A stretch of 64,000 nucleotides of DNA from Pomacea canaliculata (Eukaryota; Mollusca; Gastropoda; Architaenioglossa; Ampullariidae): assembly GCF_003073045.1 (NCBI RefSeq), contig NC_037600.1:11210758-11274757 (forward strand), written 5' to 3'. The notes below the pieces were generated by a model that was not told the origin of the DNA, did no database searches, and saw nothing but the letters and a program-made list of their open reading frames with translations. This document shows positions 19,136-49,000 of the stretch, piece by piece (positions within the stretch are counted from its first letter, which is position 1; each line of letters starts with the position of its first letter). The position numbers were made by a program, and so were the translations under genes.

Positions 19136-19328
19136 AAATAAAATATTTATCTTTCTTCGATTGTACGCCTTTTCTTGTTTTTTGTTCCACTCGAGAGTAC
19201 CTCTTCAAAAACAGCGATGTGATTTTCCTAAATTTTTAACATTAAATTTTATTTTCCTGAGATAAACAGTAACCCAACACTACAAACTGTGTATTATGTT
19301 TAAATGTTTTATATCTTCATACTTCAAG

Positions 19329-22300
19329 ATGGCTCAGCCACACGAACGAGAGTGTGCCGTGTGCACGAATGACTTCACCACACCAAAGATTCTACCCTGT
19401 GGTCATCTCCTGTGTCGAGAATGTGTCATTTCCTGGATGGATTCCAAACCTGATGCCGGGTGTCCGCTGTGTAGATGTCCTATAGTAGAGCAGTCAGATG
19501 GAAGTTCGTCCGACACTGTTGACGCCCTGCCGACAGACTTTGTGATGGAAGCGCTGGTGGAGAGCGCTCGTGTGCTGAGTAAAGATCACCTTTGTTGTGT
19601 GTGTGAGGACGTCAGGGCGGACTTCATCTGTATGCAGTGTCAGGACATGTTGTGTTCAGCGTGTACAAAGGTTCACAGAAAACTTTCTGCAACCCGCAGT
19701 CACGATGTGGAGAGTGTCAGCACTGTGACACCTGAACGTCTGGCTGCCAGCCGCCCGGCACTGTGTGCTGACCACGGCGACAAACAGGCGGAGTTCTTCT
19801 GCCGCGAGCACCGCCTCGCTGTCTGCTCAGCTTGTAAGGCTAACAAACACACAGTATGCAGAAAAACAAACTATCTCGACAATGAAAAAAAGTCAGTTCA
19901 ACTTTCCCTTAACGACCTAACAAAGATTCTGGTAGAAGCGGAGCAGAAGCTAGAGCAGGCTATAGGTCAGGTGACGTCACGTCTACAGGAAGTTGAAGTC
20001 AGCGAAAAAGAAGACATGGCGCAGGTAGACAAGACATATGACAGTCTTCAAAAGTTGGTGGGAGATGTTTGTAACAAGTTGAAGGAAAACACTCGCAAGT
20101 CACATCTCCAAATGAGGAATTCATTACGTCACGTGAAGACTGGCCTTAGCAACCGTCTAGGGAAAGTGACGTCACACAAACACATTGTAACCCGAGTCAC
20201 GGCAGTGTCAACAAGTCCTGCACTGATACACATGACACAGGCTCTGACAGACAGGGTCAACAGCCTTGACCTCAGCGCCGACTTACAAGGAGAGGTGTGG
20301 GTGAAGCCCTTGTCTAGTGTAGAGTGCTGTCAAGAAGTTGTGAGACGGGTAGAAGGTGATCTCCTGATGTTAAAGCAGCAAAAGACAGACTCAGAGGTAA
20401 AAGTTTTTCATTTTTGTTATCTATTATTTTGTTTTTGTTTTTGTAACATTAAAACAGGTTTCTTGTTTCCTATTCATCTTTGTCTTCTTAAGAAACCTTT
20501 CTTTTCCCTTCCTTGTATTAGCAGCTAGTGAGAAAGAGAAAATAAGAGAAGGCTCTTATTAAATTGTTTCAGAGGACGCAAAGTATCTACACAGCAGCAC
20601 TAAATAATTGTCTATTACCTGTTCCTACAGCGGTCTAAGCAAACAGAGGAAATGTGACTGTTATATATCAAGATCCTGTTGTGACTGTTGTTTACAACTA
20701 AAAAAAAATGTCAGGACTAATATTGTAACTAGTAAAACCTCTGATCACAATGGTGCATATCCCATTTCCTTATAAAAACTTTAAAACAAAAAGATAAAAC
20801 ACACACACACAGAGTCTCTTGTATTTTTGTTAAATTTATTTCAGAATGCATGTTTTATTCAGTCATTAAGTTTAGAAATTTGTAGTAAAGTCATCTACTA
20901 ACCTTAAAATGTATTTCCTATGATAACACCGCCAGTAAATTCTTCAAATGAATGGAAAGGTTTATGTGTGGTATGTTGTGATTTAATGAATGGGAAGTGG
21001 ACTCTTGCGGACAAACTGTTTCCTAACAGTATGATTGCAAATCTCAACAGAAAAGAACTTATCAAATACAACTCATACCACTGATATTAAAACATTTCAG
21101 TTATTAAATACAGAATAATAATAATTGATAAGTTTATTTACTTATTTACTATTATTTATGATTTGCAATAAAACTTAATAGATGTTTACTATAGATCTGT
21201 TAATAATTTTTATGTACAAAAGAATATTATTTACAGTTGGTTGCACAGCCACCAGTCCTTGTGTTCCACGACAACTGCGGAATAAACATTCGTCTGACGA
21301 ACGGTAACAGGACCGCGGAGAAGATAAAACTGAGTACCATCCTTGACGGGGTGGTTGTGTCACGTGACCCTATGTTAGCGAACGTCTTGTATGAAGTAAG
21401 ATATTTGTCTAAAACTATGATGATGGCAACGATGATAATAATAATGACGATTAGTACTGCTTTAGTAAATCGGGCTTCAGAATAAAAATTAGTCTTATTC
21501 ACGTTTCTTTCTTTTACAGGGTACAGACATAAACAAAAATCATTCTGATTTAGTTTGTTTCCTTTTTTTCAAGATCGTTGATACCATTTGGATGAAAGCT
21601 TACTGAGGACGGATTGAGTAGTCTCAATACATACTTTCTCTGGTCACGCTTGTAGCTTTACTGAATGATTGACATTCTCTAGTGCACGTAGTCATTGTAA
21701 TAAGCTGTCACAGCTTGACATGTCATGACACTGGTATGTTGACGCAGGTCAGAGTGGACACAGTAACAGGTAGATACAACGCGCTATTTCTGGGTTTGAC
21801 AAGAATTTCTCCTGCATGCTTCACTGTGACACAGTGGCCTATAGTCGTGGATGACTCCGTTATCATCGGGCCCAGTTTGGTCAGCTACCAGCAGAAATTT
21901 GTGAGTCTTCATGTCTCTGAAAGCAGATGGCTTGTAGTTTTGTCTCCGTTGAAGAGATAAAGCTAGTGACATTCACTTATTTTCACTCTTTTATTACACA
22001 AAGAATGATTGAAGGTTTAGTGGGATTTTCTTTACCTTTCTAATGAGCCGGTAAAACTTAGCGACAACAATTAATTCCCAAATTTAAATTAAAATCTTTG
22101 CCTACTGTAAATGAAAAAAACTACATACATCCAGATATATAGAATGAGGCCAATAACAGAGACCTTAGACTAATGTGTATATGTTGACTTAGGTGAGACA
22201 TGATAAGTTATTTACGCGGTTTGATTTGTTTGACAGTAAATTTTATAAAAATTGTGGATAAAAGAATGCAAGTGTGGTAATAGCCTAGATTTGTAGACAT

Positions 22301-26830: not shown

Positions 26831-27051
26831 TTTAATAAAATCTTTATCTTTCTTCGATTGCACTCCTCTTTTTCTTGTTTCTGTTCCACTCCAGAGTACC
26901 TCTCCAAAAACACAGCAATAGAATATATGTACCTAAATGTCTTAAAAAAGGTCTAAATGTCTGAAAAGTTTATCCTACAGAGGTAACCACTATCCTAACA
27001 CTATAAAATGTGCATTATGTTTGAATGTTTTGTATCTTCAGACTATTCAAG

Positions 27052-30000
27052 ATGGCTGAGCCACACGAAAGAGAGTGTGCCGTGTGCACGAATGACTTCA
27101 CCAAACCAAAGATTCTACCCTGTGGTCATCTATTGTGTCGACAATGTGTCATTTCCTGGATGGATTCCAAACCTGATGCCGGGTGTCCGCTGTGTAGATG
27201 TCCTATAGTAGAGCAGTCAGATGGAAGTTCGTCCGCCACTGTTGACGCCCTGCCGACAGACTTTGTGATGGAAGCGCTGGTGGAGAGCGCTCGTGTGCTG
27301 AGTAAAGATCACCTTTGTTGTGTGTGTGAGGACGTCAGGGCGGACTTCATCTGTATGCAGTGTCAGGACATGTTGTGTACAGCGTGTGCCAATGTTCATA
27401 AAAAGCAATCTGCGACCCGCAGTCACGATGTGGAGAGTATCAGCACTGTGACACCTGAACGTCTGGCTGCCAGCCGCCCTGCACTGTGTGCTGACCACGG
27501 CGACAAACACGCGGAGTTCTTCTGCCGCGAGCACCGCCTCGCTGTCTGCTCAGCCTGTAAGGCTAACAAACACAAAGTATGCCTGGAAACAAACTATCTT
27601 AACGATGAAATAAAGTCAGTTCAAAACTCACTTACCGACCTAACAAAAAATCTGGTAGAAGCGGAGCAGAAGCTAGAGCAGGCTATAGGTCAGGTGACGT
27701 CACATCTACAGGAAGTGGATGTCAGCGAACAAGAAGACATGGAGCAGGTCGACAAGGTGTGTAACCGTCTTCACAAGTTGGTGGAAGATTTTTGTAACAA
27801 GTTGAAGGACAAGTGTCGCAAGCAACATCTCAAAATCAGGAAGTCGCTATGTGACGTCAAGACTGGCCTTAGCAACCGTCTAGGGAAGGTGACGTCACAC
27901 AAACACATTGTGACGCGAGCGGTGGCCGTGTCACCACGTCCTGCACTGATACACATGACACAGGCTCTGACAGACAGGGTCAACAGCCTTGACCTGAGCA
28001 CTGACCTGCAAGGAGACGTGTGGGAGAAGCCCTTGTCAAGTGTAGAGTGCTGTCAAGAAGTTGTGAGACGGATACAAGAAGAGCTCCTGATGTTGAAGCA
28101 GATGACAGAGTCAGAGGTAAAATATTATCCTTTTTAATCCTTTATAAATTTTTAGGGGGTTTTGTAACATTTAAACAATATTTTTCTTTGCTAGTCATTT
28201 TCCATTTCTTAAGAAACCTTTTTTCCCTCCCTTGTATCAGCAACTAGTGACAAAACGAAAATGGAGTTATATGTAGTGTGTGTATATGTGTGATTCAAAA
28301 CAGACAGAGAGAAATCACGTTTGCCAGATATCTGTGTTATCTGTGCCCGATGAATTCTTACCACAGTCTGTTGTAGTTTCGTTAAATTTATTTCAGAATA
28401 CATGTTTTATTTAGTCATCACACTGTAAATCTCGTCAAACGAATGTAAAGGTTAATGTGTGATATGTTTTTATTTAATGTATGGGAAGTGGACAGACACA
28501 AGACTTCCTAAAAGTATGATTGTAGATTCTCACCAGAGAAAATAAATTATCAAATACAACTCATAACACTAATACCAGAATCAGGGCTTCTGCTAAGGCT
28601 AAATTCTTTCGTGGTCCCAGGACCCCTTCTGCAGATTTTTAAGGGGTCCTGTTCTCGCCCAAATTTGAAGGGACCCCCATTGACGATAATTGAAGGGGTC
28701 CTCTGAACTTTTTAATGCGTACTGTACGCACTTTTTTGCGTAAGCAGAAGCCCTGCAGAACATTTTTAGCTAATAAACACAGTATGCTATAGATCTGTTA
28801 ATAATTTTCATGGACAAGAGAATATTATTTACATTTGGACGCACAGCCACCAGTCTTTGTGTTCCACGGAAACTGCGGAAAAAACATTTGTCTGACGAAC
28901 GGTAACAGGACCGCGGAGAAGATAAAGCTGAATATCTCCGGTAACGGGGTGGTCGTGTCACGTGACCCTATGTTAGCGAACGTCTTGTATGAAGTAAGAT
29001 ATTTGACTAAAACTATGATGATGAAAACAATTATCATTATAATGATGATTAGTACTGTTATTAATAAATCGGGCTTCAAAATAAAAATTACTTTTATTTA
29101 CTTTCCTTTGTTTTACAGGGTACAGACGCAAACAAAAAATCATTTTGAATTATTTTGTTTCCATTTTCTAAAGATCCTTAATGCAAATTGATGACAGCTT
29201 ACTGAGGACGGATTAAGTAGTCTCAATACATTCTTTCTCTTTTCACGCTTGTGACTTTACTGAGAGATTGACATCCTTTAGTGCAAATAGTCATCCTAGT
29301 GAACTGTAACAGTTTGACATGTCATGACACTGGGATGTTGACGCAGGTCAGAGTGGACTCAGTAACAGGTGGGAACAACGAGCTATTATTGGGTGTGACA
29401 AGAATTTCTCCTGCAGGCCTTACTGTCACAAAGTGGTCTGAAGACCTGAAAGACTCCGTTATCATCGCGCCCGATTGGGTCTTCCACCATCGACAACGTG
29501 TAAGTCTTCATGTCTGAGTGAGGATGACTTGTGGTTTGCTCTTCGTGTAAGAGATGAAGCTAAGTGACATTCACTTATTATCACTTTTATATTACACAAA
29601 GCACGATTGAAGGCTTAGCTTAAGTTTTCTTTTAATTTCTATTAAGCAGGTAAAACATCGGCAAAAAAATGTATTCCCAAATTTAAATTAAAATCTTTTC
29701 CTACTGTAAATAAAAACTTACAGATATCTAAATATGTAGAATGAGGCCAATAAGAGAGACCTTAGACGGATGAGTATATGTTGACTTAGGTGAGAGTAGG
29801 ATAAGTTATTTAGGGGTTTGATATTTTATGGACAGTAAACTTTATTAAATTGTGGAAAAACAATGGAAGTGTGTTCTAAGACTTGATTTTGTAAAAAATG
29901 TTTCCCCGAAGCCGAGCGAATACCCGTTTGGAGAAATTGAACTAAAGCTTTTACTGACCTGACATAAATCAGACCCTAGTGCTTAAACAAAATCTTTTTT

Positions 30001-31637
30001 TGTACATCAAGTAAATGAAATCACCCTGCTCATACCTAACATTCAGAAATACCAAGCATTTTCTCTCGTACTCAGTTACAAAAAAATAATTGTCGAAAAG
30101 TGCGTGTTTGAGTTAAAGACGGAGGTCAAGGTGGGGGGCTCACTCCACGCCCAATATTTTATTAATAAGATAAAAGTATCAGGTATTTATATGTAGGTGC
30201 CGATACCGTTCGCAAAAGAACTCGAGAGACTTAAAGTCGGGAGTCGAGTCGGGGTACTGGTGACCTCATCCAACGACCTTCACCTCTACATCAACGGACG
30301 GGACCAGGGCGTTGTAGCAAAAAATGTTAGACAACCCTGGTTTGCTGTCTTTAATATTGGCAGTTCAGTTAGTAAGGTAAGAGATAAGGTTATCACAAAC
30401 ACCACAGTTAGTCATACAGGCAGACACTGACACTGACAGAAGAAAACAAACATAGATCAGTGGGTGTCTCAGTGCCCAGTGGAATTTATTTTTACTTGAT
30501 TAGCTTCATTTGTTGTTGTAATAGTTATTTTCTTTTAAATTCTTTTTTCTTTTTTCTAAGCATGATCGTTAATGTATTTATGTTTACATCCAAACACTGT
30601 ATCCTAAAGTTTAATTTTAATAAAGAACGTCATGCAGGGTTGAAAAAACAAAAAATAAATACATAAACACATGAATCACTCTATATCTATTTATATATTC
30701 CACACTATCGCACAGTTTTCTTAATTAACTAGGACCTCTTGGGTCGCAGTCTCTAAAGATTTTTTTTCAAAACCAAGAAATTCCAATGTCCGATGATGGA
30801 AATGGTTCCAGTAATTGGCTTTCACAAACTATAAACTACTTTCACTCAAGATGTCCGCCACGCGGCCTTTCGAAAAGCAAAGGTAGCATCTGTGGGTCAC
30901 TAGGTTGTTAGACTAATCACAACACAGGAAGAAAATTATCCGTCAGTGGATCCTCTCCTTAGTCTGGAAGTAGCGACGGTTATCCCCGCCTCCGAGTAAA
31001 ATCTCAATATTCTTTGAAACAAATGAGCCTCGGTTGGCAGCTCCAGTAGTTCCACCTGTTACAACTATGAGGGAGGTAGAACCTTTGTAATATTTGTAAT
31101 ATTTGTAATATGTTAGTGCGGTTCTTCTGTCAACTTTGGGACTTGTCCGGGCATGTCGTTCCTTTATTTTCCCCCATTGGCTGAGCAACAAACTACATTC
31201 TTCCCGACTCTTTCCTTCACAAACTTCACACACTCTTTCTGCCACACAGGCCTATTAGGGAATGCCTCAAATGAGTTTACAGTGAATACTAGTCTCCATA
31301 CTAAACAATGGTTAGTTACCCGCAGTCTCAACAACACACTACACAATCGTAACCAGTCGAGTTCCTAACACAAACACACTTTATATCACACAGAGGAGTT
31401 TGGGATTGCCTGGGGAGACTATAACGGTCTCTTGAGAGGTGATGACATGAAGGTGTCTAGAAAACTGCAGTTAATGAGCAATAAAGAGAAAGAGAAGACA
31501 CTTGTCTTACCTATTGCATGGAGTTGGGGTACAAACTTTTTTTATTTATTAAAGTTTACATTTGTACAATGTTTGTACCTGCTGCTCTGTTGTCTGTTTT
31601 ACAGGTGACAGCCCTTCCTACATCTGGCAGAACATAA
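27052..31637 (+). CDS. Copy D: RING/B-box/coiled-coil/NHR protein, intact, 525 aa
   Basis: E1 27052-28116 (355 codons), E2 28847-28993, E3 29347-29499, E4 30197-30376, E5 31605-31637, all phase 0. The C3HC4 RING, both B-boxes and the coiled coil are complete. The usual E2 acceptor (TTTACAG before TTGGAC) is changed to TTTACAT here, so the next AG, 12 nt downstream (GCACAG), must be used; this drops four codons (LDAQ) and keeps the frame. AATAAA lies at 31667-31672. Copy E is the closest relative, sharing the acceptor change and the intron-1 MITE. Role as for B: a putative ubiquitin ligase with an NHR recognition domain, substrate unknown. Confidence 0.87.
28582..28755. mobile_element. MITE, 174 bp, in intron 1 of copy D (hAT-like ends)
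   Basis: Ends CAGGGCTTCTGCT and, inverted, CAGGGCTTCTGCTT. The flanks CAGAAT and CAGAAC are direct repeats; copy G at the same place has CCAGAACG without insertion. The same element sits at the same site in copy E (40539-40714), so it was inherited through the D/E duplication. Confidence 0.8.
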
Positions 31638-32080
31638 AGAATATCAGAGAACAAGAAGGCTGAGACAATAAAACAAGAATATTTTTGTGATCGAGGATGA
31701 CAGTAACCTGGGCGTTGACATTACCAATGAGAGTTCCAGTGAATTTGTTTTGTTAACCTGATTGGTATCCAAAACAAGACGAGTACACATTGTATCTGTG
31801 TAGGATTTTTTCCAGTTGAAAGACATTAGCAAATAAAAAAAGAGCTGGATGAGCTGCCTTCTCCCCACCCACACACACACATAAAGAAAAGAGAGAAAAC
31901 AACTTCTTAGCATGAAGAGAAGTTGGATCATATATTATTTAAGCAAATATAATATATTGTGCAAACACTACGACAGTATATACATAAGTGCTGCTGTCAA
32001 TTAGTTACTTGTTAAATACCTGGAATATACCTTTGGTTTTTTGGTTTGTTCAATAATTTTAAAAAGGCTGTTCATAAATT
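31638..32080. other. 3' UTR and 3' flank of copy D
   Basis: Aligns to 13953-14400 and 43608-44060; homology stops abruptly near 32080, where unrelated DNA begins. Confidence 0.55.
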
Positions 32081-33174
32081 TTCTCTGTTTCATCGCTCGC
32101 ATCACTGTAATTCTGCATCATTTGACAATGAAGTGGATATTGAGATTGCTGTACGTTCAGACCTGTACGAACATCGAGAATCTGAAGATTAGACTGTGTC
32201 AGTGTCACAAACCTGCTGCGATGTATTTTTTTAAATGTTTTCTTTTAAATTAGTAATTGTCTGGGTGAGGTGGTAAAGACAGCTATCACTGGGGCTGTTA
32301 GTGTCAACAGTCTGAGGCGTGCCGCGCTATACAGGGATGGCCGGCTGATCTGTGTTTAATTAAGTTTGTGTTGATAGGTTGTTTGTTGGAAGAACAATGG
32401 AAAGAGTGTAGTATTGTTTGGGATTTGTGTGGTGTGACTGGGTTTTTTCCTTTACGGGAGCGGGGAGAAGTACAGTGTCCTTTGTCAGTGCGTCCAGAGC
32501 GGACGGTTTTTCTATTGTCAACAAGTCTTGAACGACTTGTGGTGTAGTCCTGACTGGACTGAACGAATCCCGACAAGATTTGTATCTTTAAATCCTTATT
32601 AACATTGAACCTGTTGAGGTTTTCTTTTGGATTTTTTCTTTTGGATTTCTATTTTGTTTTGTGTTTTTCTCTTCTGTTTGTGCCTATTCTTCGTATCCAC
32701 CTGGGGTTCACCGACCTACACTGAGTTGGATATAACTTCAAGAAGTGAAAACTTTGTGTACTTTTCACGTGGATATATTGTGTATGTTAGAAGTGAAAAC
32801 ATTGAGCTGTTTCAAGTGAGACTTTGTGAGGAACTGTACTGTCGGCAAGAAGATTGAATATTTTTGAGACATTGGAAGCAACGTGTGTTCGAACTGTCTG
32901 TTGGAAAATTTGGACTGGTTTTGTTTCTGTATTTTAAATTATATTATTTTTAAAATTTTAATTGCTGTCTGTGTTTTAATTTATTTATGTTCCTCGTCTG
33001 AAAGGCACTGTAGAGTGCAGGCGACAGTCAGTTTTTTGAAGGCTGTTACTACAATTTTGTAATACATGTGACTTAACAATCGTAAATGGCAGCTGCGCTG
33101 GAGATTAAAAGGGCCGATATACTTACATAAACACTATGGGCAGTAGCACAATTCATTATTTCCTTTGCTCTAGA
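32081..33174. other. Inserted DNA of unknown kind between D and relic X
   Basis: Not alignable to the other spacers. It leads directly into a LINE fragment and could be that element's 5' region, or a separate insertion. It is moderately T-rich, with no open frame that I recognise and no clear ends. Confidence 0.3.
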
Positions 33175-33795
33175 GAAATGAGGCATGGCCAGTATAGTCT
33201 AGAGATAGCGGAGCGATTCGAATCGAAGCATCTGCCCCTTTCAGTTGACCTCAAATCGGGACATAGTGATATCAGAGACAGAACCAGTAACTATAGAGTA
33301 AATTATCTTGGATAACAATAAATGCCAGTCTGTCATGTCCAACATAAAAAACGAAAAAGCAGGCAAGAAATTAAGTGATGCTTTCAACATGCTAGACGTC
33401 TCTGTAGAACAGTCAATAGAACTTTTTAACTCTGGCCTTCTAAACGCGGACCAATGTATGATGCGGAAAATGTGGACAGGGTGCAGAAAGAGTAGGTGGT
33501 TTGATTTAGTGTATACAAGCCAAACGTTAAACGAGAAGGTGTCACAGGAAATTTCGACGCACGGCTAAAACTATCAACAGACAAAAATATGTAGAAACGA
33601 GTCGTAGGTATCGAAACCTAATGCAAAGCAAACAAAAGCAGTTTAAAAAGGATCTGTTGGAAAAGCTGTCCACTGACACAGAAAATTCACAAGCATTTTG
33701 GAAAGAAGCTAAAGCAATCTGCAGACAATCTAACCCTGTACTATAGACAAGAGAACATGGTATGAACACTTTAAAAATGTTTTTCAAGGTGACAT
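33175..33795 (+). mobile_element. LINE fragment: endonuclease end and linker before the reverse transcriptase
   Basis: Translation in two frames gives ESKHLPLSVDLK (the end of an endonuclease domain), then DNNKCQSV, a KSRWFDLVYTS motif and QAFWKEAKAI, with TWYEHFKNVFQ-like residues at the end. These are landmarks of the segment between the endonuclease and reverse transcriptase of CR1/Jockey-type LINEs. Both ends are truncated and frames are broken. Clade assigned from memory of motifs. Confidence 0.6.
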
Positions 33796-33885
33796 AGTAG
33801 ATTTTAGTCATCTCATGTGTCGAGAATGTGTTATTTATTTTTTGACTATAGACTTTCATGCTGAATGTCTTCTGTGTAGATGTGC
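33796..33885 (+). pseudogene. RING-exon scrap
   Basis: A 90-bp match to the middle of E1 (TCATCTCATGTGTCGAGAAT ... CTGTGTAGATGTGCTAT). It shares derived features with the RING scrap of relic X at 35480-35560 (ACTTTCATGCTGAATGTC), so the two are copies of one another. Confidence 0.6.
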
Positions 33886-34900
33886 TATCTATCTATCTAT
33901 TCCTTTTCGTGCATTAGGTTGCACATAAGCCATCAACCAGAGTCCGCCCTCGATTTCGATCGGCTGAAACCCGCTCTAGGTGACCCCATGTCCAGCCCTT
34001 TCCTTTCATCTCCCTTTCCACTGTTCTTCTCCAAGTTTCCTTTGGGCGGCCTCGTTTTCTTCGGCCGTCTGGAGTCCATCGTAGGGCGACTGTGGAGAGG
34101 TCTGCTGTCTGCTGGCTGAGCATATGTCCAATCCATCGCCAATGCCTTCGTTGAACCTGCGTGGTGATGGACTCGGTTTCAGCTCTTCGGTGGAGTTTTT
34201 CGTTGGTGATGGTGTTTGGCCAAAAGATGTTAAGTAGGCGCCTGAGGCATCTGTTTTGGAAGATGTCAAGCTTGTTACTGATGGCTTTGGTTTGACAGAC
34301 TTTCTCTCGTCTATCGTCTTCCATGTCTCTTCTCTGATCCACTGTTTTTTCTTCTTCCGTTAGAAGCCCAGTGTTTTCTGTCCTGTTTCCTGTAAGACTC
34401 GATTGAAGTCGTCTAAGGTCATCTCTTGTTGGCCTCCTAGAGCCTGGGATCTGTTCTTTACTTCCATAACAAAGGCTCGTTTGGTGGCTGGATCTTTCAG
34501 TTTGCCGGAGTCCACTCTCTGCTCACCTGCCTGTTTTTCTCGCGATCGAAGTAGCTTCAGAGAAACTGTGGCTATCACAAGTGTGTGGTCACTGGCAATG
34601 TCTGCTCCTCTGTAGGCTCTAACATCTTGAAGTGAGCTCCTCCATCTTCGGTTGATGATGACATAGTCTATCTGGTTCTTTGTGATCCCATCTGGTGATG
34701 TCCACGTTGCCTTGTGGATGTCTTTGTGTTGGAAGAGTGTGCCTCCAATCAGTAGGTTGTTTTCTTCACAAAAGTCTGCCAGTCTCTCTCCGTTGTCATT
34801 GATGGTTCCAATTCCATGCTTGCCCATGACATGCTCCCTGTAGGTATTGTCACTTCCCATCTTGGCATTGAGATCGACGATGATGAGAAACATATCGTAG
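33886..34900 (-). mobile_element. RTE/CR1-like LINE, truncated and internally deleted
   Basis: Read on the minus strand: an endonuclease part (DLNAKMGSDN, NQIDYVIINRRWRSSLQD, ASDHTLVIA) at about 34890-34360 runs into WIREETWK, then jumps straight to the C-terminal region (NRCLRRLLNIFWP, RRHWRWIGHML, RKRGRPKETWRRTVEREMK, ending VDGLCAT near 33917). The whole reverse-transcriptase domain is missing. The 3' end is a short (TAGA)n tail, seen as TATC units at 33886-33901. Non-autonomous. Confidence 0.75.
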
Positions 34901-35404
34901 GCTCGAATGGTACAGGATGCTCCACAAAAGCCAACAATGTCAAAACAGTTGAACATGTCAGTAAAATAAGCGCAGAATCCTATATATTAAAAACTTGCGC
35001 ATCAAGATTACCAATGAAATGAGGCAACAACAAACAGTGAATAACAATCCATAAGAAAGGCGAACGGCACAACAAGCATCACAGATGAGTAGGAGAAACT
35101 AAAACTCGACATACGTCCATAGATGAGACAAAACGACAGAGAGCTGGTCCCCTCCAGCCACGCACACACACAAACTATCACAACATGACAATAGTGTAGG
35201 AAATCCAAATAAAAATATCAAAGGGCCTTCTATCGTCTCTGAACTGTCTGGTTACGAGCAGCTTTTCCTTGTCTACCCTACACCCATAACTAACAATTAT
35301 CGTAATTATAAAAAAATGAGTTTGATACAATTGTTTCCAGTATGGCATTCACTTAGTACCTTAAATTACATCGCATATTTATATATATATATATTTTTAT
35401 AATC
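34901..35404. other. Unassigned DNA between LINE and relic X
   Basis: No gene recognised. A short AT repeat lies at 35380-35393. Confidence 0.3.
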
Positions 35405-35849
35405 AAAGATGGCGACAGCATGAGTTCAGCCCAACTAAAAAGTGTACCATTTGCATGAATTACTTCACATCAAAGATTTTACTCATCTCCTGTCAAGAAT
35501 GTGTTATTTGCTTGTTGACAATGGACTTTCATGCTGAATGTCTACTGTGTAGATGTGCAATAGATATGTACAATGTACTATACTTCTAACAGGATGTATG
35601 GATTTGTTTGTGAACCTGCAGCCAGCACAAGCTGCCGACCACCTGCCCACAGATTGTTTTGATGGAATCGCTGGTGCAAAACGTTGGTATACTGACTGTA
35701 CACACGTGTGTTGTTGACAAAGTCCGCAAGTGGGGCTGCGATGCCGACCAGAAGTAAGACAGAGACGGGAAAAGGATATGAACTCTACATTTCTCAGCTT
35801 GGTGAAGTCACATCCTGTGAACCGCTGGAGCAGAATGTCTTATATCAGG

Positions 35850-35902
<53 letters not shown>

Positions 35903-37253
35903 GGGTTAGATTAGGAAGAGAAGGATTTTAGTGACAATTCTGAATGACTTTTACCTCTTGATATGAAAATATACTTGTATGAAAAAGAGTAGATATGGAT
36001 GAACCTAGAATGGCACGCCATTTTGCACAGACGAGTTTAGCTAGGTCACTAATTAAGACAACATAAATCACTGATGGCAAAGTTCATTCGTCCATGAGCT
36101 ACTTATCTTCGATCTTACTTTTACAGCCACAGGGTGTGCCATTAAACATAATCAGTGTTTGTGCGTGTGTGTCTATCTATTTAGCTGCGGATGGACCAAA
36201 GTAAATGGAAATCCAGACAAGCAGGAAGTGTGCAGTACGGAGTGTCAGAAGAGCGCCCAAAGGGATGTAACTTGCAAACGGTAAACGTATTTCATCACGT
36301 GACATAAACGTGAAGTTAAATAACAATTTGTATATTCTGGTCTGTCTGCTTCCACTCTTGAGATGACTTATATTTAGCAGCTGACAACTATGTATGAAAC
36401 TGTCTATGTTTGTCATTTTTCAAATGTAAATTCTAACAACTGTCACAACTGTGAAAAGAAAAATAAAAGTTTGACTTGAAAAAATACTGTGATGGGATTT
36501 GAATGTGTTTTATTTCAATCCACTAATGAAGAATGATATCATAATAAATATATTTACCAGCTTTGCATAAATTTTTTACAGGAACTCAGCCATTCCAGAT
36601 GGAAAGAGATAAATTATGGATCGGCTGGATTAATGATCGACTCCTATAATTACCTTCACTTTTACCTCGATGGCAGTCTGATAGACACAGAGAAAATACC
36701 AGTTTCAAGACCGTGTTACGACCTGTTTAAACTCAACACTCGCATGAAGGTAGACAATAGAAGTATTAATCTATTTTCTGTCAATATGTAAATTTAGTAT
36801 GCGTAACTAATTTCACAAGAAATGTTAAATATTGTTTACGTGTGGTAATTGTTGACAGGTAAGACTTGTTTCTTCTAAACTAACTCCTAAGTCCTAGCAA
36901 GTTTAAAATTATAAATACCCGACAAAGAACTATCAACTGAAAAAAATTCATGTTCCAAGTGTTCCCAGGGTAAACAAATAATTAAAAGATGTAATTGTTT
37001 TCGTTACTGTCAATAAGTTTATACAGAGTTTTTGTTTCACAAGTATTTCTTCATAGCTATGTCACTAACATTGTTACAATACATTTACCACCAATAACCT
37101 TTCATTAGGTGGGTAATTAAAAGCTCTTTCTTTCAATAAAGATTTACTGAGCTATTGATAGCAGTTATTTAAACTGCAGATTTCCCACTGTTTCTATTGG
37201 CTATTTTCACTCTGCAGGTCACGTTGCTGCACCCGATACTAAAGATCATCTAA
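35405..37253 (+). pseudogene. Relic X: divergent family member with broken RING but recognisable NHR exons
   Basis: 35410-35590 aligns to E1 (KCTICMNYFTSKIL, ECVIC, ECLLCRCAI), but the start frame is closed by a stop and the CGH of the RING is deleted. 35640-35720 retains a scrap of the linker to B-box 1. E2-like residues (LGEV, LEQNVLYQ) end at 35848. E3-like 36185-36280 reads LRMDQ ... VQYGVSEERP and is 32 codons instead of 51. E4-like 36582-36749 is fully open (GLMIDSYNYLHFYLDGS ... PCYDLFKLNTRMK). E5-like 37218-37253 reads VTLLHPILKII then stop. The acceptors, donors and phase-0 joins of E3-E5 are kept. B-boxes and coiled coil are absent. Not capable of a full product; an NHR-only transcript cannot be excluded. 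Confidence 0.65.
35850..35902. repeat. (GAT)n microsatellite after the E2 donor of relic X
   Basis: About 17 GAT units. The same intron position in copies D, E and G has short ATGATGATG runs, so this is an expansion of a family-wide seed. Confidence 0.9.
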
Positions 37254-38638
37254 AGCTGAAGGAAGACAAACTGAGCGAGAACAAGACTATACAAAAAAAG
37301 TTCATTTGCTTAGTTTGTAACTCCATAAATTACAAACCCTGAGAAATCATTTCATCTCAAAAGTCATATTATCACCGAAGTGTTTCTAGCACCTTGTAAT
37401 TTCTTACAGACTTACATGTCTGGCAACCTGACAACTTACCTACATTTACTCTCATGTTGTGTAACAGACAGATCAAGTTACGAACTGTTTTATATAACGA
37501 TAAAAATATACATCAGTGTCTTTGTAGATAAAAACATCGACTTGAGTTATTGAAACCTCTTTCTTTTAAATGCTGCGGGTATCCAGTTGAGCTCACAGTT
37601 CGCTTGACGGTCCAAACCTCGTAGTATTATTAGTAACATACATTTCAAGATGGTACACAAAATAGGTTTTGAAGTGTGCTTCTATCATGGTGTTTGCCAA
37701 TCGCCAGTCATACACAAACATCACGTATCAAAAGACTGTAAGTATGCAAGCCCGTTATTGTAACCAAGGGCTATGAATACTGTTTACTTTCCCTCTGTGC
37801 CCTCCACTCCTACCCAACACGTAGTCTCGCCATGAATACCCTTTCATGAAAAGAACGTGTAAATGGTATCGGCTGAGCACAGAAGTGTTCACGGCAAAAA
37901 CCGTTCACATTCCCTTTGTGTCCACACTCCTTTGTGCAATAATGGGGTCACCCCCGCCATTGTGCTGCTTTTTTCAAGATGTCTGAGAGATTCTCTACCC
38001 TCAAACCGTAACCGTCATACCTGCCATAACCTAGGTGACCTCGTTTTAGTGGTTAATGGCAGACTGTCATCAGAAATTCCAGCAGACGACTGAAAGGTCC
38101 CTATAACTGCGGTCTACCAAGGCAGCTGTAGATCATCTCTTTGTATAGCAACATATATAATATATAGTTTGGTATTGGCTGTTGATACGCGCATAGCTCT
38201 TCAACCATCTCTGATGTTACAATAATAATAAAATTATTATCGACGTTGTTGTATACAGTTTGAGCCTACAGAGTCCAGCATTGTCTTTTCGTGGATTTCC
38301 AAGTAATAAGCAAATGAAAAAGAAACCTTTAACTGTAATAGTTTACTTAGGCTTTTGACTTATTTTTGTATGTGTAAACATCTTTAAATTTCAGCTCTTC
38401 TGTTATCTAGCATTTAATGTATTAAACATTTATTCATAAATCATTTTATAGTGATTTGCAGTATATTGCATGCATGTTTCGAAACGCAACGACATAATTA
38501 TTTGAGACGATCTTAGGTATTAATAAATAAGAGCCATTGTTTATGAAGAAAACATATTTTTCATATCTTCGGCTTAAAATATGTAAGCCATTTTCTAAAA
38601 ATTAAGAAAACACTAGAACAAAACTCAAAAATATCACC
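37254..38638. other. Spacer between relic X and copy E
   Basis: No gene recognised. Around 37630 TTAGTAACATACATTTCAAG is followed by ATGG, reminiscent of the start of E1, but the match ends there. 37800-38100 is GC-richer than its surroundings and unassigned. Confidence 0.3.
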
Positions 38639-38770
38639 GGGAATTCCCAAACAGTTGTAACGGAACGTATGTTTATTTATAGCACGGCCTGTCCCCATAG
38701 CGACAAAGCACTCACAACGCAAACAGTTTTAGACAAGTTAAGTCTGGAAGATTCAGGGACACTAGCAAGC
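38639..38770 (+). promoter_or_regulatory. Copy E promoter module with NF-kB-type palindrome
   Basis: GGGAATTCCC at 38639-38648 is a perfect kB palindrome. The core ACGGCCTGTC ... ATAGCGA follows at 38684-38703. No CACGTG is present. The distance to the ATG is only about 300 bp; there is no RING relic and no obvious leader donor, unlike C, D and F. Confidence 0.5.
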
Positions 38771-38998
38771 CTAGTAGCTTAAAACTTCATCTAACTTATT
38801 CGTCTCGAAAAGTAAAGGTGACCAATCAATCTGTATTTATACTGATAAACGTCAGCAAGGATATCGAAGTGTGTAGAGCAAAGAACCGTTTCACGGAAAC
38901 TGCAGTGTGACACAAGTAGGTCAGTCATTGTAAAACACAAAATTCATTGCTGCAAGAATTCAGTTTGATTTACAGTTTCCATTAGTGGTCGGAAAAGG

Positions 38999-41900
38999 AT
39001 GGCTCAGTCCCACGAAAGAGAGTGTGCCGTGTGCACAGAAGACTTCACGACACCAAAGATTCTACCCTGTGGTCATCTCCTGTGTCGAGAATGTGTCATT
39101 TCCTGGATGGATTCCAAACCTGATGCTGGTTGTCCACTGTGTAGATGTCCTATAGTAAAGCAGTCAGATGGAAGTTCGTCCGCCACTGTTGACGCCCTGC
39201 CGACAGACTTTGTGATGGAAGCGCTGGTGGAGAGCGCTCGTGTGCTGAGTAAAGATCACCTTTGTTGTGTGTGTGAGGACGTCAGGGCGGACTTCATCTG
39301 TATGCAGTGTCAGGACATGTTGTGTTCAGCCTGTACGAAAGTACACAAGAAGATGTCAGTAAGCCGCAGTCACGATGTGGAGAGTGTCAGCACTGTGACA
39401 CCTGAACGTCTGGCTGCCAGCCGCCCTGCACTGTGTGCTGACCACGGCGACAAACACGCGAAGTACTTCTGCCGCGAGCACCGCCTCCCTGTCTGCTCAG
39501 CCTGTAAGTCTCACAAACACAAAGTATGTCGAGAAACAAACTATCTTGACGATGAAATAAAGTCAGTTCAAAACTCACTTACCGACCTAACAAAAAATCT
39601 GGTAGAAGCGGAGCAGAAGCTAGAGCAGGCTATAGGTCAGGTGACGTCAAGTCTACAGGAAGTTGATGTCAGCGAACAAGAAGACATGGCGCAGGTGGAC
39701 AAGGTGTGTGACCGTCTTCACAAGCTGGTGGAAGATGTTTTTAACAAGTTGAAGGACAAGTGTCGCAAGAAACATCTCAAAATCAGGAAGTCGCTATGTG
39801 ACGTCAAGACTGGCCTTAGCAACCGTCTAGGGAAGGTGACGTCACACAAACACATTGTGACGAGAGCGGTGGCAGTGTCACCACGTCCTGCACTGATACA
39901 CGTGACACAGGCTCTGACAGACAGGGTCAACAGCCTTGACCTGAGCACTGACCTGCAAGGTGAGGTGTGGGCGAAGCCCTTGTCAAGTGTAGAGTGCTGT
40001 CAAGAAGTTGTGAGACGGATACAAGACGAGCTTCTGATGTTGAAGCAGATGACAGAGTCAGAGGTAAAATTTTATCCTTTTTAATCCTTTATAAATTTTT
40101 AGGGGGTTTTGTAACATTTAAAAAATATTTTTCTTTGCTAGTCATTTTCCATTTCTTAAGAAACTTTTTTTCCCTCCCTTGTATCAGCAGCTAGTGACAA
40201 AGCGAAAATGGAGTTAAATGTAGTGTGTGTGTGTGTATGTGTGATTCAAAACAGACAGAGAGAAATCACGTTTGCCATATATGTCTGTGTTATCTGTGCC
40301 CTGATGAATTCTTACCACAGTCTGTTGTAGTTTCGTTAAATTTATTTCAGAATACATGTTTTATTTAGTCATCACCTGTAAATTCTTCAAACGAATGTAA
40401 AGGTTAATGTGTGATATGTTGTGATTTAATGTATGGGAAGTGGACTCTTACAGACACAAGACTTTCCTAAGAGTATGATTGTAGATCTCACCAGAGAAAA
40501 TAATTATCAAATACAACTGATAACACTAATACCAGAATCAGGGCTTCTGCTAAGGCTAAATTCTTTGGGGTCCCAGGGACCCCTTCTGCAGATTTTTAAG
40601 GGGTCCCTGTTCTTCGCCCAAATTTGAAGGGGACCCCATTGACGAAAATTGAAGGCTTCCTCTGAACTTTTTAATGCGTACTGTACGCACTTTTTTGCGT
40701 AAGCAGAAGCCCTGCAGAACATTTTTAGCTAAGAAACACAGTATGCTATAGATTTGTTAATAATTTTCATGGACAAGAGAATATTATTTACATTTGGACC
40801 CACAGCCATCAGTCCTTGTGTTCCACGAAAACTGTGGAAAAAACATTCGTCTGACGAACGGTAACAGGACCGCGGAGAAGATAGAGCTGAATACCTTCGG
40901 TAACGGGGTGGTTGTGTCACGTGACCCTATGTTAGCGAACGTCTTGTATGAAGTAAGATATTTGACTAAAACTATGATGATGACAAAGATTATCATTATA
41001 ATCATGATTAGTACTGTTAGTAATAAATCGGGCTTCAAAATAAAAATTACTTTTATTTACTTTCCTTTGTTTTACAGGGTACAGACAGAAACAAAAAATC
41101 ATTTTGAATTATTTTGTTTCCATTTTCTAAAGATCCTTAATGCAAATTGATGACAGCTTACTGAGGACGCATTATAAGTAGTCTCAATACATTTTTTCTC
41201 TTTTCACGCTTGTGACTTTACTGAGAGATTGACATCCTTTAGTGCAAATAGTCATCCTAGTGAACTGTCACAGTTTGACATGTCATGACACTGGGATGTT
41301 GACGCAGGTCAGAGTGGACGCAGGAACAGGTGTGTACAACAATCTATCACTGGGTGTGACACGAATTTCTCCTGCACGCCTCACTGTGACACTGTGGTCT
41401 AGAGACCTGCAAGACTCCGTTATCATCATGCCCGCTCTGGTCTTCCATCAGGGAGAAAGTGTAAGTCTTCATGTCTGTGAGTGCACATGACTTGTGGTTT
41501 GGTCTTCGTGTAAGAGATGAATCTTAGTATCATTCACTTATTTTCACTTTTTTATTACACAAAGCATGGTTGAAGGTTTTCATGGATTTTCTTTTCTTTT
41601 CCCATGAGCTGGTAAAACTTAGGGACAAATGTTATTCCCAAATTAAAATCAAAATCTTTACTTGCTGTAAATAAAAACCTACAGACATCTAAATATGTAG
41701 AATGAGTCCAATAAGAGAGACCTTAGACGGATGTGCATATGTTGACTTAGGTGAGACAGGATAAGTTATTTAGGCAGTTTGATTTGTTGGACAGTAACTT
41801 TTATAAAATTTTGGATAAAACAATGGAAGTGTGTTCTAAGACTTGATTTGTAAAAATGTTTTCTGAAGCCGAGGAAAACCCGTTTGGAGAAACTGAACTA

Positions 41901-43607
41901 AAGTTTTTACTGACCCAAATAAAGCAGACCCTAGTCGTTAAACAAAATCTTTTTTTGTTGTACATCAAGTCATGGTAAAATGAAATCACACTGCTCATAC
42001 CTAACATTCTTCGGAAATACCAAGCAATTCTTCTCGTACTCAGTTACAAAAAGATAATTGTCGAAAAGTGCGTGTTAGAGTTAAAGAAGGAGGTCAAGGT
42101 GGGGGGCTCACTCTACGCCCAATATTTTATTAATAAAATAAAAATATCAGGTATTTATATGTAGGCGCTGTTACCGCTCGCAAAAGAACTCTGGAGTCTT
42201 GAAGTCGGGAGTCGAGTCGGGGTACTGGTGACCTCATCCAACGACCTTCACCTCTACATCAACGGACAGGACCAGGGCGTTGCAGCAAAAAATGTCACAC
42301 AACCCTGTTTTGCTGTCTTTAGTATTAGCAGATCAGTTAGTAAGGTAAGAGATAAGGTTATCACAAACACTACAGTGAGTCATACAGGCAGACACTGACA
42401 CTGACAGAAGAAAACATAGATCGGTGGGTGTCTCAGTGCCCAGTGGAATTTATTTTTAACTTGATTAGCTTCATTTGTTGTTGTCATAGTTATTTTCTTT
42501 TAAATTCATTTTCTCTTTTCTGAGCATGATTCTTAATGTATATATGATTACAACCAAACACTGTATCTTAAAGATTAATTTTGCTAAAGAACGTTATGCA
42601 GGGTTGAAAACACAAAAAATAAATACATAAACACATGAATTACTTGATATCTATTTATATATTCTAGACTATGGCTGAGTTTTCTTAATTAACTAGGACC
42701 TGTTGGGTCACAGTCTCTAAAGCTTGTTTTTTTTTCAAAACCAAGAAATTTCAATGTCCGATAATGGATATGGATCCAATTGGCTTTCACAAACTATAAA
42801 CTACTTTCACTGAAGATGTCGGGCAAGGTAGCATCTGTGGGTCACTAGGTTGTTAAACTAATGACAACACAGGAAGAAAATTATCCGTCAGTGGATCCCC
42901 TCTGTTAGTCTGGGAGTAGCGACAGTTATCCCTTACCTCCGAAATAAAATCTCAATATTCTTTGAAACAAATGAGCCTCGGTTGGCAGCTCCAGTAGTTC
43001 CACCTGTTACAACTATGAGGGAGGTAGGACCTTTGTAATATATGTAATATTTGTAATATCTCGGTGCGATTCTTCTGTCAACTTTGGGACTTGTCCGGGC
43101 ATGTCTTTCCTTTGTTTCCCCCACTGGCTAGGAAAGGAACTACATTCTTCCCGACTCTTTCCTTCACAAACTTCACACACTCTTTCTGCCCCACAGGCCT
43201 ATTAAGGAATGCCTCAAATGAGTTTACAGTGAATACAAGTATCCATACTAAACAATGGTTAGTTATCCACAGTCACAACAACACACTACACAATCGTAAC
43301 CAGTCGAGTTCCTGACACAAACACACTTTATATCACACAGAGGAGTTTGGGATTGCCTGGGGAGACTATAACGGTCTCTTGAGAGGTGATAACATGAAGG
43401 TGTCTAGAAAACTGCAGGTAAAGATAAATAAAGAGAAGTCAGTATCTTACCTATTTCCTGGAGTTGGCGTACATACTTTTTTTGTTAGTAAAGTTGATAT
43501 TTGTACAAATGTTTGTTTGTTTGATAAGTAAAGCACTAAGCTTTGTACCTGTTGCTCTGTTGTCTGTTTTACAGGTGACAGCCCTCCCTACATCTCGGAG
43601 AACATAA
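38999..43607 (+). CDS. Copy E: RING/B-box/coiled-coil/NHR protein, intact, 525 aa
   Basis: E1 38999-40063 (355 codons), E2 40806-40952, E3 41308-41460, E4 42165-42344, E5 43575-43607, all phase 0. The start is the only in-frame ATG (MAQSHERE), which supports the start chosen in the other copies. RING, B-box 1, B-box 2 and coiled coil are complete. As in D, the upstream E2 acceptor is TTTACAT, so E2 begins after CCACAG, four codons shorter. NHR landmarks are VVVSRDPMLANVLYE, LGVT, DSVII, VGSRVGVLV, HLYING and CFAVF. AATAAA at 43637-43642. The D/E pair gives the clearest view of excess replacement changes in E3 and E4. Confidence 0.88.
40539..40714. mobile_element. MITE, 176 bp, in intron 1 of copy E (orthologous insertion to 28582-28755)
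   Basis: Same ends (CAGGGCTTCTGCT / AGCAGAAGCCCTG), same insertion site and same flanks as in copy D. Confidence 0.8.
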
Positions 43608-46052: not shown

Positions 46053-49000
46053 ATGGCTGAGCCACACGAAAGAGAGTGTGCCGTGTGCACCAATGACTTC
46101 ACCACACCAAAGATTCTACCCTGTGGTCATCTCCTGTGTCGACAATGTGTCATTTCCTGGATGGATTCCAAACGTGATTGCGGGTGTCCGCTGTGTAGAT
46201 GTCCTATAGTAGAGCAGTCAGATGGAAGTTCGTCCGCCACTGTTGACGCCCTGCCGACAGACTTTGTGATGGAAGCGCTGGTGGAGAGCGCTCGTGTGCT
46301 GAGTAAAGATCACCTTTGTTGTGTGTGTGAGGACGTCAGGGCGGACTTCATCTGTATGCAGTGTCAGGAAATGCTGTGCTCATCGTGTACAAAGGCTCAT
46401 AAAAAACTTCCTGCAACCCGCAGTCACGATGTGGAGAGTGTCAGCACTGTGACACCTGAACGTCTGGCTGCCAGCCGCCCTGCACTGTGTGCTGACCACG
46501 GCGACAAACACGCGGAGTTCTTCTGCCGCGAGCACCGCCTCGCTGTCTGCTCAGCCTGTAAGGCTAACAAACACAAAGTATGTCGAGGAACAAACTATCT
46601 TGACGATGAAATAAAGTCAATTCAAAGTTCATTTACCCAACTAACGAAGATTCTGGTAGAAGCGGAGCAGAAGCTAGAGCAGGCTATAGGTCAGGTGACG
46701 TCACGTCTACAGGAAGTTGATGTCAGTGAACAAGAAGACATGGCGCAGGTGGACAAGACATGTGACCGACTTCAAAAGCTGGTGGAAGATTTTCGTAAAA
46801 AGTTAAAGGAAAAGACTGGCACGTCACATCTCAAAATCAGGAATTCATTACGTGACGTCAAGACTGACCTTAACAACCGTCTAGGAAAGGTGACGTCACA
46901 CAAACACATTGTGACGCGAACGGCGGCAGTGTCACCACGTCCTGTACTGATATACATGACACAGGCTCTGAAAGACAGGGTCAACAGCCTTGACCTTAGA
47001 GCTGACCTGCAAAGAGATGTGTGGGTGAAGCCCTTGTCAAGTGTAGAGTGCTGTGAAGAAGTTGTGGGAAGGATAGAACAAGAGCTACTGACGTGTGGGC
47101 AGCAGAAAAAGGAGATAAAGGTAAACGCTTATCGTATTTTTTTTTTAGTTGTTATTGTAACAGAAAACAAGTGGTTTTTCTGTTTCTAGTCATCCTTCTC
47201 TTTGGGGGACCGTTTCATCCACCCACATATTAATATTTCGAGTACAAGCGACTTTCTTAAAATGAGAGTGAAAGAATGTATGTTTGCATGAAATCGCTTT
47301 TGATATTATTTTATGGAGGCTGTACTGAGACAGAAATAGAGTGTGTATATATGTTTGTTTGCTTGTTTGTGTCTGTGGTCGACATTGATATCCACATAGC
47401 TGTGTTACCCACGGTACTTTGTCAAGAAATCTCTTAGAGTTGTTAAATATTTCTCGAAGGTCTACCATCCTGTTATATTTAGTAAAATTCAACTCTCTCT
47501 ACAAGCTTTGCCACCAATTTCTGCTTGAGAAATTATTCTTGGTATAAGTGAATAAGATTTCGACTGGAAATTTCGTTGATTTATGCTATAAATACAACAC
47601 GCTTTTTTACTATTTAAAAAATCAAGAATATCATTGTAAAAAAGGTCTGTCATTGTAACAAGCGAAGCCTCTATTCCTAAGTGTACTCCTTACAAAAAAA
47701 TACACACACACACACACATACACATCCACATACACACTTGTAAACTGTTGAAATGTTTTTTTCAGAATGCAAGCTGATAAGTTATGCCATAATTGGTAGT
47801 AAAGTTGTCCACCGAAACAAATATTTCTTGCATTTTCACGAATACCAGACTCAGTAAGCTCTTATCGTCATATCGTTCATAAAGTTTTAAAGCGTTGATT
47901 TGTTATTGTGTGTGGTTTGTTGTCATATCATATACAGTGACATGTCATACAGTCACAAGACTATGACAGCAGATTGAAATGGTTTATACACTCGACTTCT
48001 ATATATACACACAAACTTCAAAACAATAAAACCATTAAATGTTACATTAATAGTAGATCAATAATGTTGAATAATAATTTTATTACTGAATGAATATTAT
48101 TATACCTTACACAGATGTCGAGTAAAAGTTTTTATTAGATTTTATCGACTAAACTAAAGATTGAACATTATTTACAGGTGGCAGCACAGCCGCCAGTGAC
48201 ACAGTTACCAGTCTTTGTATTCCATGACATCTGTGGCACCAACATTCGTCTGAAGAACTGCAACAGGACCGCGAAGAAGAAAGATTTAAGTCGCTTCGGC
48301 ACGACAGTGGTTGTGTCACGTGACATCATGGTGACTAACATCTTGTATGAAGTAAGATAAAATTTTCAAATTGATTTGTCGTCGTCGTCGTCATCGTCCA
48401 AACGTGCTAGAGAGCAAATTTTACTTTTAGTTACTTTAATTCTGTGATAGTGCACAGACGAAAGTTAACTAAACAATCATTTAGAACGGATTGACTAGTG
48501 ATAATATGTGGTATCCATGGATCCCTAGTTGTACTGACAGCTTGATAACTAGTAGGTCACGTAGTCACCCCAATCAGCTGTCACAGCTTGACATCACGTG
48601 ACACTGTCGTGTTGACGCAGGTGAGGGTGGACGCAGCATCAGCTCCAAACAACACGCTGTCCCTGGGTGTGACAAGCATCCCTCCTGCACAACTCGAGTT
48701 GACCAATTATTCCAACTACGTGAAAGACTGCAGCATTATCGGCGATACCTGGATCGGGAAACATGGAAAGCTCGTGAGTTTCTATGGCAACAAGTGCGTG
48801 CAAATCGCTCTGTCACTTGTTCTTCGTATAAGAATTAAATTATCTTTTATTTCTTTTCAACTTTTTTTTATTGAAATCTTTATTCTTTAATGTTAAGTTA
48901 TATATTCTATTGTTTTCTAATTAGTAGGTAAAATTTAGTGAAATCTTTTTTACTCTAAAAAATCAATGAATTGCTTCTTTGTTTTCCAAACACTTACTCC

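What the first reader, a model, noticed from the sequence alone, without database searches (positions are those of the whole stretch)
29347..42344. Excess replacement changes in NHR exons E3 and E4 between sister copies D and E
Hand codon comparison of D and E: E3 has 17 replaced and 5 silent codons out of 51; E4 has 14 replaced and 1 silent out of 60. The 66 intron bases directly upstream of E3 (29281-29346 against 41242-41307) differ at one base. Exons that change faster than adjacent introns, mostly by replacement, point to positive selection on the recognition surface. Variable sites cluster after VRVD, between LGVT and DSVII, and at the end of E3; the E4 core VGSRVGVLVTSSNDLHLYING is unchanged.
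Basis: seen in the sequence. Interest (0 to 1): 0.87.

Follow-up and report, generated by a model that had tools for sequence, protein, structure and literature searches.

The report
Fast-evolving sensor exon in TRIM-like genes
A row of duplicated animal genes for ubiquitin-tagging proteins keeps its front half fairly constant while one exon of the presumed target-binding half has changed its protein letters faster than neighbouring non-coding DNA, the pattern expected of an immune sensor in an arms race.

Summary
But D and E are close only in intron 1, exon 2 and intron 2; from the E3 acceptor on, B, D and E are about equally distant, so the upstream intron is a poor yardstick. Intron 3 differs by 11.6%, E3 by 17.6%. 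The pair alone is weak: E3 ω 1.48, not significant; E4 replacements match introns.

For E3 the conclusion survives with all copies. Eight copies: whole-exon ω 1.95 (P 4e-4), M8a/M8 2ΔlnL 43.6. Five close copies: replacement tree length 0.92, flanking introns 0.35-0.49, silent 0.24. It holds in 15 of 15 topologies and in copies without a seen lesion. Exon 1 (RING/B-box) is constrained overall (ω 0.62). The genes are TRIM-like RING-B-box-NHR ligases. I infer a diversifying sensor, probably immune, with NHR in the role that B30.2/SPRY has in TRIM5/finTRIM.

The parts
27052..28116 (+). Copy D exon 1: RING, two B-box-like zinc fingers, putative coiled coil (355 codons)
   Evidence: tblastn layout; Pfam RING, B-box
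28847..28993 (+). Copy D exon 2, start of NHR domain
29347..29499 (+). Copy D exon 3, middle of NHR domain; main target of diversifying selection
30197..30376 (+). Copy D exon 4, end of NHR domain; conserved core, a few selected codons near its start
31605..31637 (+). Copy D exon 5, last 10 codons and stop
38999..40063 (+). Copy E exon 1 (RING, B-box)
40806..40952 (+). Copy E exon 2
41308..41460 (+). Copy E exon 3
42165..42344 (+). Copy E exon 4
43575..43607 (+). Copy E exon 5
28117..29346 (+). Intron 1, exon 2 and intron 2 of D: tract in which D and E are close (2.8-6.1%), probably homogenised by conversion or left by a younger duplication; it ends at the E3 acceptor
   Evidence: divergence; two-against-one sites DE:BD:BE 42:5:7, 15:4:5, 22:6:4, then 13:12:11 in E3
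183..335 (+). Copy A exon 3 (copy cut by window edge)
1088..1267 (+). Copy A exon 4
10857..11009 (+). Copy B exon 3 (E1 7744-8811, E2 9904-10050, E4 12684-12863)
21748..21900 (+). Copy C exon 3 (E1 19329-20396, E2 21249-21395; E4 at about 22594 is frameshifted)
48621..48773 (+). Copy F exon 3 (E1 from 46053, E2 48205-48351, E4 49469-49648)
55473..55625 (+). Copy G exon 3 (E2 54980-55126, E4 56314-56493; E1 from 53017 is frameshifted)
63125..63277 (+). Copy H exon 3 (E1 61337-62401, E2 62738-62884; copy cut by window edge)

Best explanation
The window holds a same-strand tandem array of eight copies (A-H, the outer two cut) of a TRIM-like E3 ubiquitin ligase gene. Exon 1 encodes RING and B-boxes with a probable coiled coil; exons 2-5 encode a Neuralized homology repeat (NHR). 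SHOWN: exon 1 as a whole is under constraint, while exon 3, in the middle of the NHR domain, has replaced amino acids about two to two and a half times as fast as the flanking introns diverged and about four times as fast as its own silent sites. Milder signals lie in E2 (chiefly codons 27-33) and near the start of E4. INFERRED: these codons are loops on the ligand-binding edge of a SPRY-like β-sandwich; each copy binds a different, changing target and brings it to a shared ubiquitin-transfer machine. The most likely driver is an arms race with pathogen proteins, as for the B30.2/SPRY domain of TRIM5α and finTRIMs.
For: Architecture: PF07177 Neuralized E 8e-23, RING and B-box above Pfam cut-offs; PDB sequence match to the KIAA1787 NHR structure 2e63, E 5e-13. 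Selection on E3: 8 copies ω 1.95, P(ω=1) 4e-4, M8a/M8 2ΔlnL 43.6, 54% of codons at ω 4.6; five close copies ω 3.9, 2ΔlnL 41.6. 15 of 15 five-copy topologies give ω 3.84-4.02. Neutral simulations of the five-copy set: LRT at most 6.7 in 15. Copies without a seen lesion: A, B, D, E, F ω 1.71, P 0.022, M8a/M8 P 7e-7; B, D, E ω 2.66, P 0.015, M8a/M8 P 9e-4. Tree lengths: E3 dN 0.924, dS 0.240; introns 0.354, 0.491, 0.461. E3 exceeds intron 2 and the first half of intron 3 in total divergence in 10 of 10 pairs of B, C, D, E, G. Control: E1 ω 0.62, below 1 with P 2e-4. The stated E3 frame is open in 8 of 8 copies. NHR and SPRY folds are alike (PMC2923778, passages); a SPRY match appears below cut-off in E. 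finTRIM B30.2 shows the same kind of signal with 15.6-17.6% of sites (PMC2657112, passages).
Against: The D-E pair alone does not prove it (E3 Fisher 0.33). 9 of 28 E3 pairs have ω below 1; each involves the distant copy F or H, where silent sites are near saturation. Copies C and G carry lesions and may be decaying. The E2 signal is not significant in B, D, E, F (P 0.21). Exon 1 itself shows a small selected class (M8a/M8 8.5, 6% of codons), and its codons 61-110 give ω 1.01 because silent changes are almost absent there. E3 total divergence does not exceed the second half of intron 3 in 3 of 10 pairs (BC, CD, CE). E3 silent divergence is below introns, so part of the high ω comes from a low dS. 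For B, D, E the observed ω 2.66 is only just above the largest of 30 neutral runs, 2.62. Codon models were my own code, not PAML, with NEB and not BEB site posteriors; exons are short (49-60 codons). dN and intron lengths come from different models. No expression, infection, population or structure data; the organism is unknown. No link to immunity is shown.
Confidence: 0.68

Rival explanations
1. Diversifying selection is real but not immune: after duplication each copy specialised for a different endogenous substrate, or the family works in reproductive or self-recognition conflict.
For: ω above 1 between paralogues is also expected of neofunctionalisation; nothing in the window ties the array to infection. 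Known NHR ligases act on self proteins such as Delta (PMC9098882, passages).
Against: The share of selected codons (54-63% of E3 under M8), birth and decay of copies (frameshifts in C and G) and tandem expansion look like known immune TRIM families (PMC2657112, passages); this is analogy only.
Confidence: 0.24
2. The apparent excess is produced by exchange between copies: D and E were homogenised upstream of E3, so E3 looks fast only against a young tract.
For: The D-E sister signal stops at the E3 acceptor, between 29313 and 29363; intron 2 is 2.8% and intron 3 11.6% divergent.
Against: E3 replacement sites also exceed intron 3 (22 of 112 against 80 of 688, P 0.017), and tree-wide dN exceeds introns on both sides. 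Exchange moves silent and replacement changes together, but E3 silent divergence is low. All 15 topologies agree.
Confidence: 0.04
3. Relaxed constraint or pseudogene decay.
For: C has a frameshifted E4 and G a frameshifted E1.
Against: Relaxation gives ω up to 1; E3 is 1.95-3.9 and stays above 1 without C, G and H. Reading frame and splice borders of E3 are intact in 8 of 8 copies.
Confidence: 0.02
4. Local hypermutation or biased conversion at E3.
For: E3 total divergence is higher than intron 2 and the first half of intron 3 in 10 of 10 pairs.
Against: It would raise silent change too; E3 dS tree length 0.240 is below introns 0.35-0.49.
Confidence: 0.02

Closest known systems
Teleost finTRIM genes (PMC2657112, passages seen)
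   Same: Multiplied RING-B-box-coiled-coil genes with a C-terminal β-sandwich domain under positive selection; in the front half only three sites near the RING remained significant
   Different: Their sensor domain is B30.2 (PRY/SPRY) in one exon; here it is NHR split over exons 2-5. Selected share there 15.6-17.6% of B30.2 sites, here 54-63% of E3 codons
Primate TRIM5α (through PMC2657112 passages; capsid binding recalled)
   Same: E3 ligase with fast-evolving loops on its C-terminal domain that determine virus specificity
   Different: Target and function are known there and unknown here; the domain differs
Neuralized / NEURL proteins (2e63 = KIAA1787, its name NEURL4 recalled; NEURL3, PMC12166272, title, start of abstract and one passage)
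   Same: NHR domain with a RING E3; NEURL3 is reported to promote the antiviral response through IRF7 ubiquitination
   Different: Recalled: NHR before RING, no B-boxes, NHR conserved and not tandemly expanded
Anthozoan NHR-caspases (PMC11251625, passages)
   Same: An NHR domain joined to a defence-type effector; one Nematostella member was the most upregulated at 24 h in a study of response to dsRNA
   Different: Caspase effector; no selection analysis in the passages seen

Membership tests
TRIM / RBCC family | N-terminal RING finger | tested here: met
   PF00097 E 3e-9, PF13639 E 6e-9, above cut-offs in D
TRIM / RBCC family | one or two B-boxes after the RING | tested here: met
   PF00643 best at 143-175 above cut-off, 2 stretches; ANCHR-like B-box at 88-126 just below its cut-off
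TRIM / RBCC family | coiled coil | not tested
   No coiled-coil predictor was run; only weak, sub-threshold Pfam matches within 171-280
TRIM class IV (TRIM5/finTRIM type) | C-terminal B30.2/PRYSPRY domain | tested here: not met
   C-terminal domain is PF07177 Neuralized, E 8e-23; SPRY only E 0.034 in E, below cut-off
TRIM class IV (TRIM5/finTRIM type) | positive selection concentrated in the C-terminal domain | tested here: met
NHR (Neuralized) domain proteins | Pfam PF07177 above its gathering score | tested here: met
   81.4 bits in D and 92.7 in E against 23.3; other copies not scanned
NHR (Neuralized) domain proteins | NHR fold as in solved structures | not tested
   Sequence match to 2e63 only; no model was predicted, because the spliced protein is not given letter for letter by the DNA as that tool requires
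Immune sensor family | induction by or binding to pathogens | not testable with these tools
   needs expression and binding data

The most novel reading that the evidence does not exclude
An animal lineage built its own rapidly diversifying TRIM-type restriction or sensor family with the Neuralized domain as the variable reader, beside the B30.2 reader of vertebrate TRIMs. Variability is packed into one 51-codon exon while the RING/B-box exon is kept alike among copies by constraint and exchange, so that new specificities plug into a constant ligase.
Probability: 0.45. Interest if true: 0.78.

Novelty: new variant of a known kind. Interest (0 to 1): 0.62.

Why it matters
NHR is best known (recall) as a conserved adaptor of Notch signalling. 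Here it holds the fastest part of a tandem TRIM-like array, faster than flanking introns. If it reads pathogen proteins, it is an independent counterpart of TRIM5α/finTRIM built on another domain, and E3 names the residues to test. I did not see such a case in seven full-text searches aimed at it of an open-licence library in which most subscription papers are missing; most listed papers were not opened.

Tried and rejected
Rejected: the upstream intron as a neutral yardstick; E4 as a strong D-E case (replacements equal to introns, P 0.27; ω above 1 in 3 of 15 E4 pairs); pseudogene decay, hypermutation and topology artefact. G and H lack the E2 acceptor that D and E use, but an AG 12 bases upstream is in phase in B, C, G and H (read), so I do not count it as a lesion.

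Led nowhere: own genome not held; NHR profile in the viral and prokaryote collections, 0 relatives among 59 and 43 pattern matches; Rfam, 0 matches. The host species was not identified. Two bivalve/TRIM reviews gave little: PMC8382680 lists a B-box orthogroup as expanded (passages); PMC3137616 holds neither 'NHR' nor 'neuralized'. Papers listed were not opened, among them PMC5094078, which holds 'neuralized', 'TRIM' and 'positive selection'.

Simulations were stopped by time: 6 of 60, 15, 14 and 15 of 200 each, 30 and 29 of 400 each; early stopping favours quick fits. In one search one of 29 neutral E4 runs reached the observed whole-exon ω 1.40. Dropped rows: C left out of E4 models (frameshift), G out of E1 codon models (frameshift), A has only E3-E4 in the window, H no E4; F's E1 was cut one codon short.

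Full report
What is there. The window looks like animal DNA with introns (inference; no organism is given). On the + strand it holds copies A-H of one gene, A and H cut by the window edges. Exon 1 encodes RING, two B-box-like fingers and a probable coiled coil; exons 2-5 encode a Neuralized homology repeat. In D, Pfam gives PF07177 at 81.4 bits against a cut-off of 23.3, and RING and B-box above cut-off. The closest solved structure by sequence is the KIAA1787 NHR, 2e63, E 5e-13. E3 keeps AG/GT borders and an open phase-0 frame in 8 of 8 copies.

The observation.

The weak points. Over full segments D-E divergence is: E1 5.4%, I1 4.3%, E2 6.1%, I2 2.8%, E3 17.6%, I3 11.6%, E4 8.9%, I4 7.8%. 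Sites where two of B, D and E agree against the third favour D+E in I1, E2 and I2 (42:5:7, 15:4:5, 22:6:4 for DE:BD:BE). They do not in E1 (31:25:27) or E3 (13:12:11); the first half of I3 favours B+E (22:14:34) and the rest is near even (I3b 15:14:13, E4 9:5:7, I4 23:21:14 and 22:24:14). The last D+E site before E3 is 29313 and the next informative site is 29363 (B+D), so the young tract stops at the E3 acceptor. The intron upstream is younger than E3 and cannot be its yardstick. Against intron 3 the D-E excess is modest: 22 of 112 replacement sites against 80 of 688 bases, P 0.017; against I2+I3 P 5e-4. For E4, 15 of 135 against 173 of 1879 in I3+I4, P 0.27; its high ratio comes from one silent change in 45 sites (P 0.07 for a deficit).

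All copies. Nei-Gojobori: E3 ω is above 1 in 19 of 28 pairs and in 10 of 10 among B, C, D, E and G; the 9 pairs below 1 all involve F or H. One-sided Fisher is below 0.05 in 8 of 28; pairs are not independent. B against C has 26 replaced and 0 purely silent codons. E2 has 6 of 21 pairs above 1 and E4 3 of 15. Pooled over the six pairs of B, C, D, E, E3 has pN 0.241 and pS 0.109. Codon maximum likelihood (own code): E3 with 8 copies M0 ω 1.95, P 4.1e-4 against 1; M1a/M2a 43.75, M7/M8 46.95, M8a/M8 43.6; 54% of codons at ω 4.6. E3 with 5 close copies: ω 3.91, M8a/M8 41.6, 63% of codons at ω 8.5. E2 (7 copies): whole ω 0.71, M8a/M8 14.9, NEB sites 1, 2, 4, 8, 12, 27-33 and 41. E4 (6 copies): whole ω 0.85, M8a/M8 9.9, one site (codon 10); in B, D, E, G sites 2, 10, 13.

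Controls. 15 of 15 five-copy topologies: E3 ω 3.84-4.02, M8a/M8 40.9-46.2; E2 ω 1.19-1.46, M8a/M8 10.7-18.3. Simulated neutral data: five-copy E3 LRT maximum 6.7 in 15, E2 3.5 in 14, four-copy E4 7.3 in 15; E3 of B, D, E maximum 6.0 in 30 against 11.0 observed, though the ω maximum 2.62 is close to the observed 2.66; E4 maximum 5.0 in 29 against 9.35; the eight-copy E3 set had only 6 runs, maximum 3.7. Only copies without a seen lesion: A, B, D, E, F E3 ω 1.71 (P 0.022), M8a/M8 P 7e-7; B, D, E ω 2.66 (P 0.015), P 9e-4; E2 of B, D, E, F not significant (P 0.21); E4 of A, B, D, E, F P 0.006. Exon 1 (B, C, D, E, F, H): ω 0.62, below 1 with P 2e-4, with a small selected class (M8a/M8 8.5, 6% of codons). 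By part: codons 1-60 ω 0.62 (P 0.19), 61-110 ω 1.01 (M8a/M8 11.1; almost no silent change there), 111-180 ω 0.49 (P 0.006), 181 to end ω 0.71 (P 0.046). Tree lengths over B, C, D, E, G: E3 dN 0.924 and dS 0.240; I2 0.354, I3 0.491, second half of I4 0.461; E2 dN 0.420, dS 0.322. Of the other + frames of E3 one is open, in F; on the - strand one frame is open in B and one in D; the Pfam match fixes the frame.

What it does. Conserved stretches look like β-strands (LGVT, DSVII, VGSRVGVLV, LHLYING, FAVF; my reading); most selected codons lie between them. NHR structures resemble B30.2/SPRY (PMC2923778, introduction passage), whose loops bind ligands; in finTRIM and TRIM5α those loops are positively selected (PMC2657112, passages). 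I infer that E3, with the E2 27-33 stretch and the E4 start, lines the binding face of the NHR, and that each copy brings a different target to a common RING ligase. A pathogen arms race is the likeliest driver; NEURL3, another NHR-RING ligase, is reported to have an antiviral role (PMC12166272, title, start of abstract and one passage). Specialisation on self substrates is not excluded.

Novelty. A RING-B-box-NHR array with a positively selected NHR did not appear in seven searches aimed at it; the other three searches were for structure, finTRIM and NEURL3. The Aplysia immunome paper names the NHR domain once, in a figure legend on TIR/COR proteins, and counts 22 TRIM genes (PMC9334734, passages). 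I rate it a new variant of a known kind.

Noticed in passing
27232-27381 (copy D exon 1, codons 61-110) and the same codons in B, C, E, H: No silent difference among B, C, D and E in 50 codons (pS 0 against 0.12-0.17 in the other parts of exon 1); dS to H is 0 (B) and 0.015 (D), to F 0.06; 69 bases (27299-27367) are identical in all 7 copies with exon 1. Either a conversion hot spot or a constraint on the DNA/RNA itself.
   Followed up: partly
29614-29669: A block in intron 3 where D differs from both B and E at most informative sites, with D-E divergence up to 29% in 75 bases; perhaps a patch from another copy.
   Followed up: no
22594-22773 and 53017-54076: Copy C has a frameshifted exon 4 and copy G a frameshifted exon 1, both with an open exon 3: birth and decay of copies.
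   Followed up: partly
28827-28855, 40786-40814 and the same place in B, C, G, H: B, C, G and H have an in-phase AG 12 bases upstream of the exon 2 acceptor assumed for D and E; G and H lack the downstream one. Exon 2 may start with four more codons in some copies.
   Followed up: no
33914-34956, - strand: Probable fragments of a non-LTR retroelement between D and E (34363-34956: match to an endonuclease-reverse transcriptase family, E 2e-4, below cut-off; 33917-34342: no match).
   Followed up: partly
19056-19145, 26691-26884, 33794-33889, 35437-35562, 45679-45834: RING-like remnants outside the main copies; at least one holds a stop. Probably relics of further copies.
   Followed up: no
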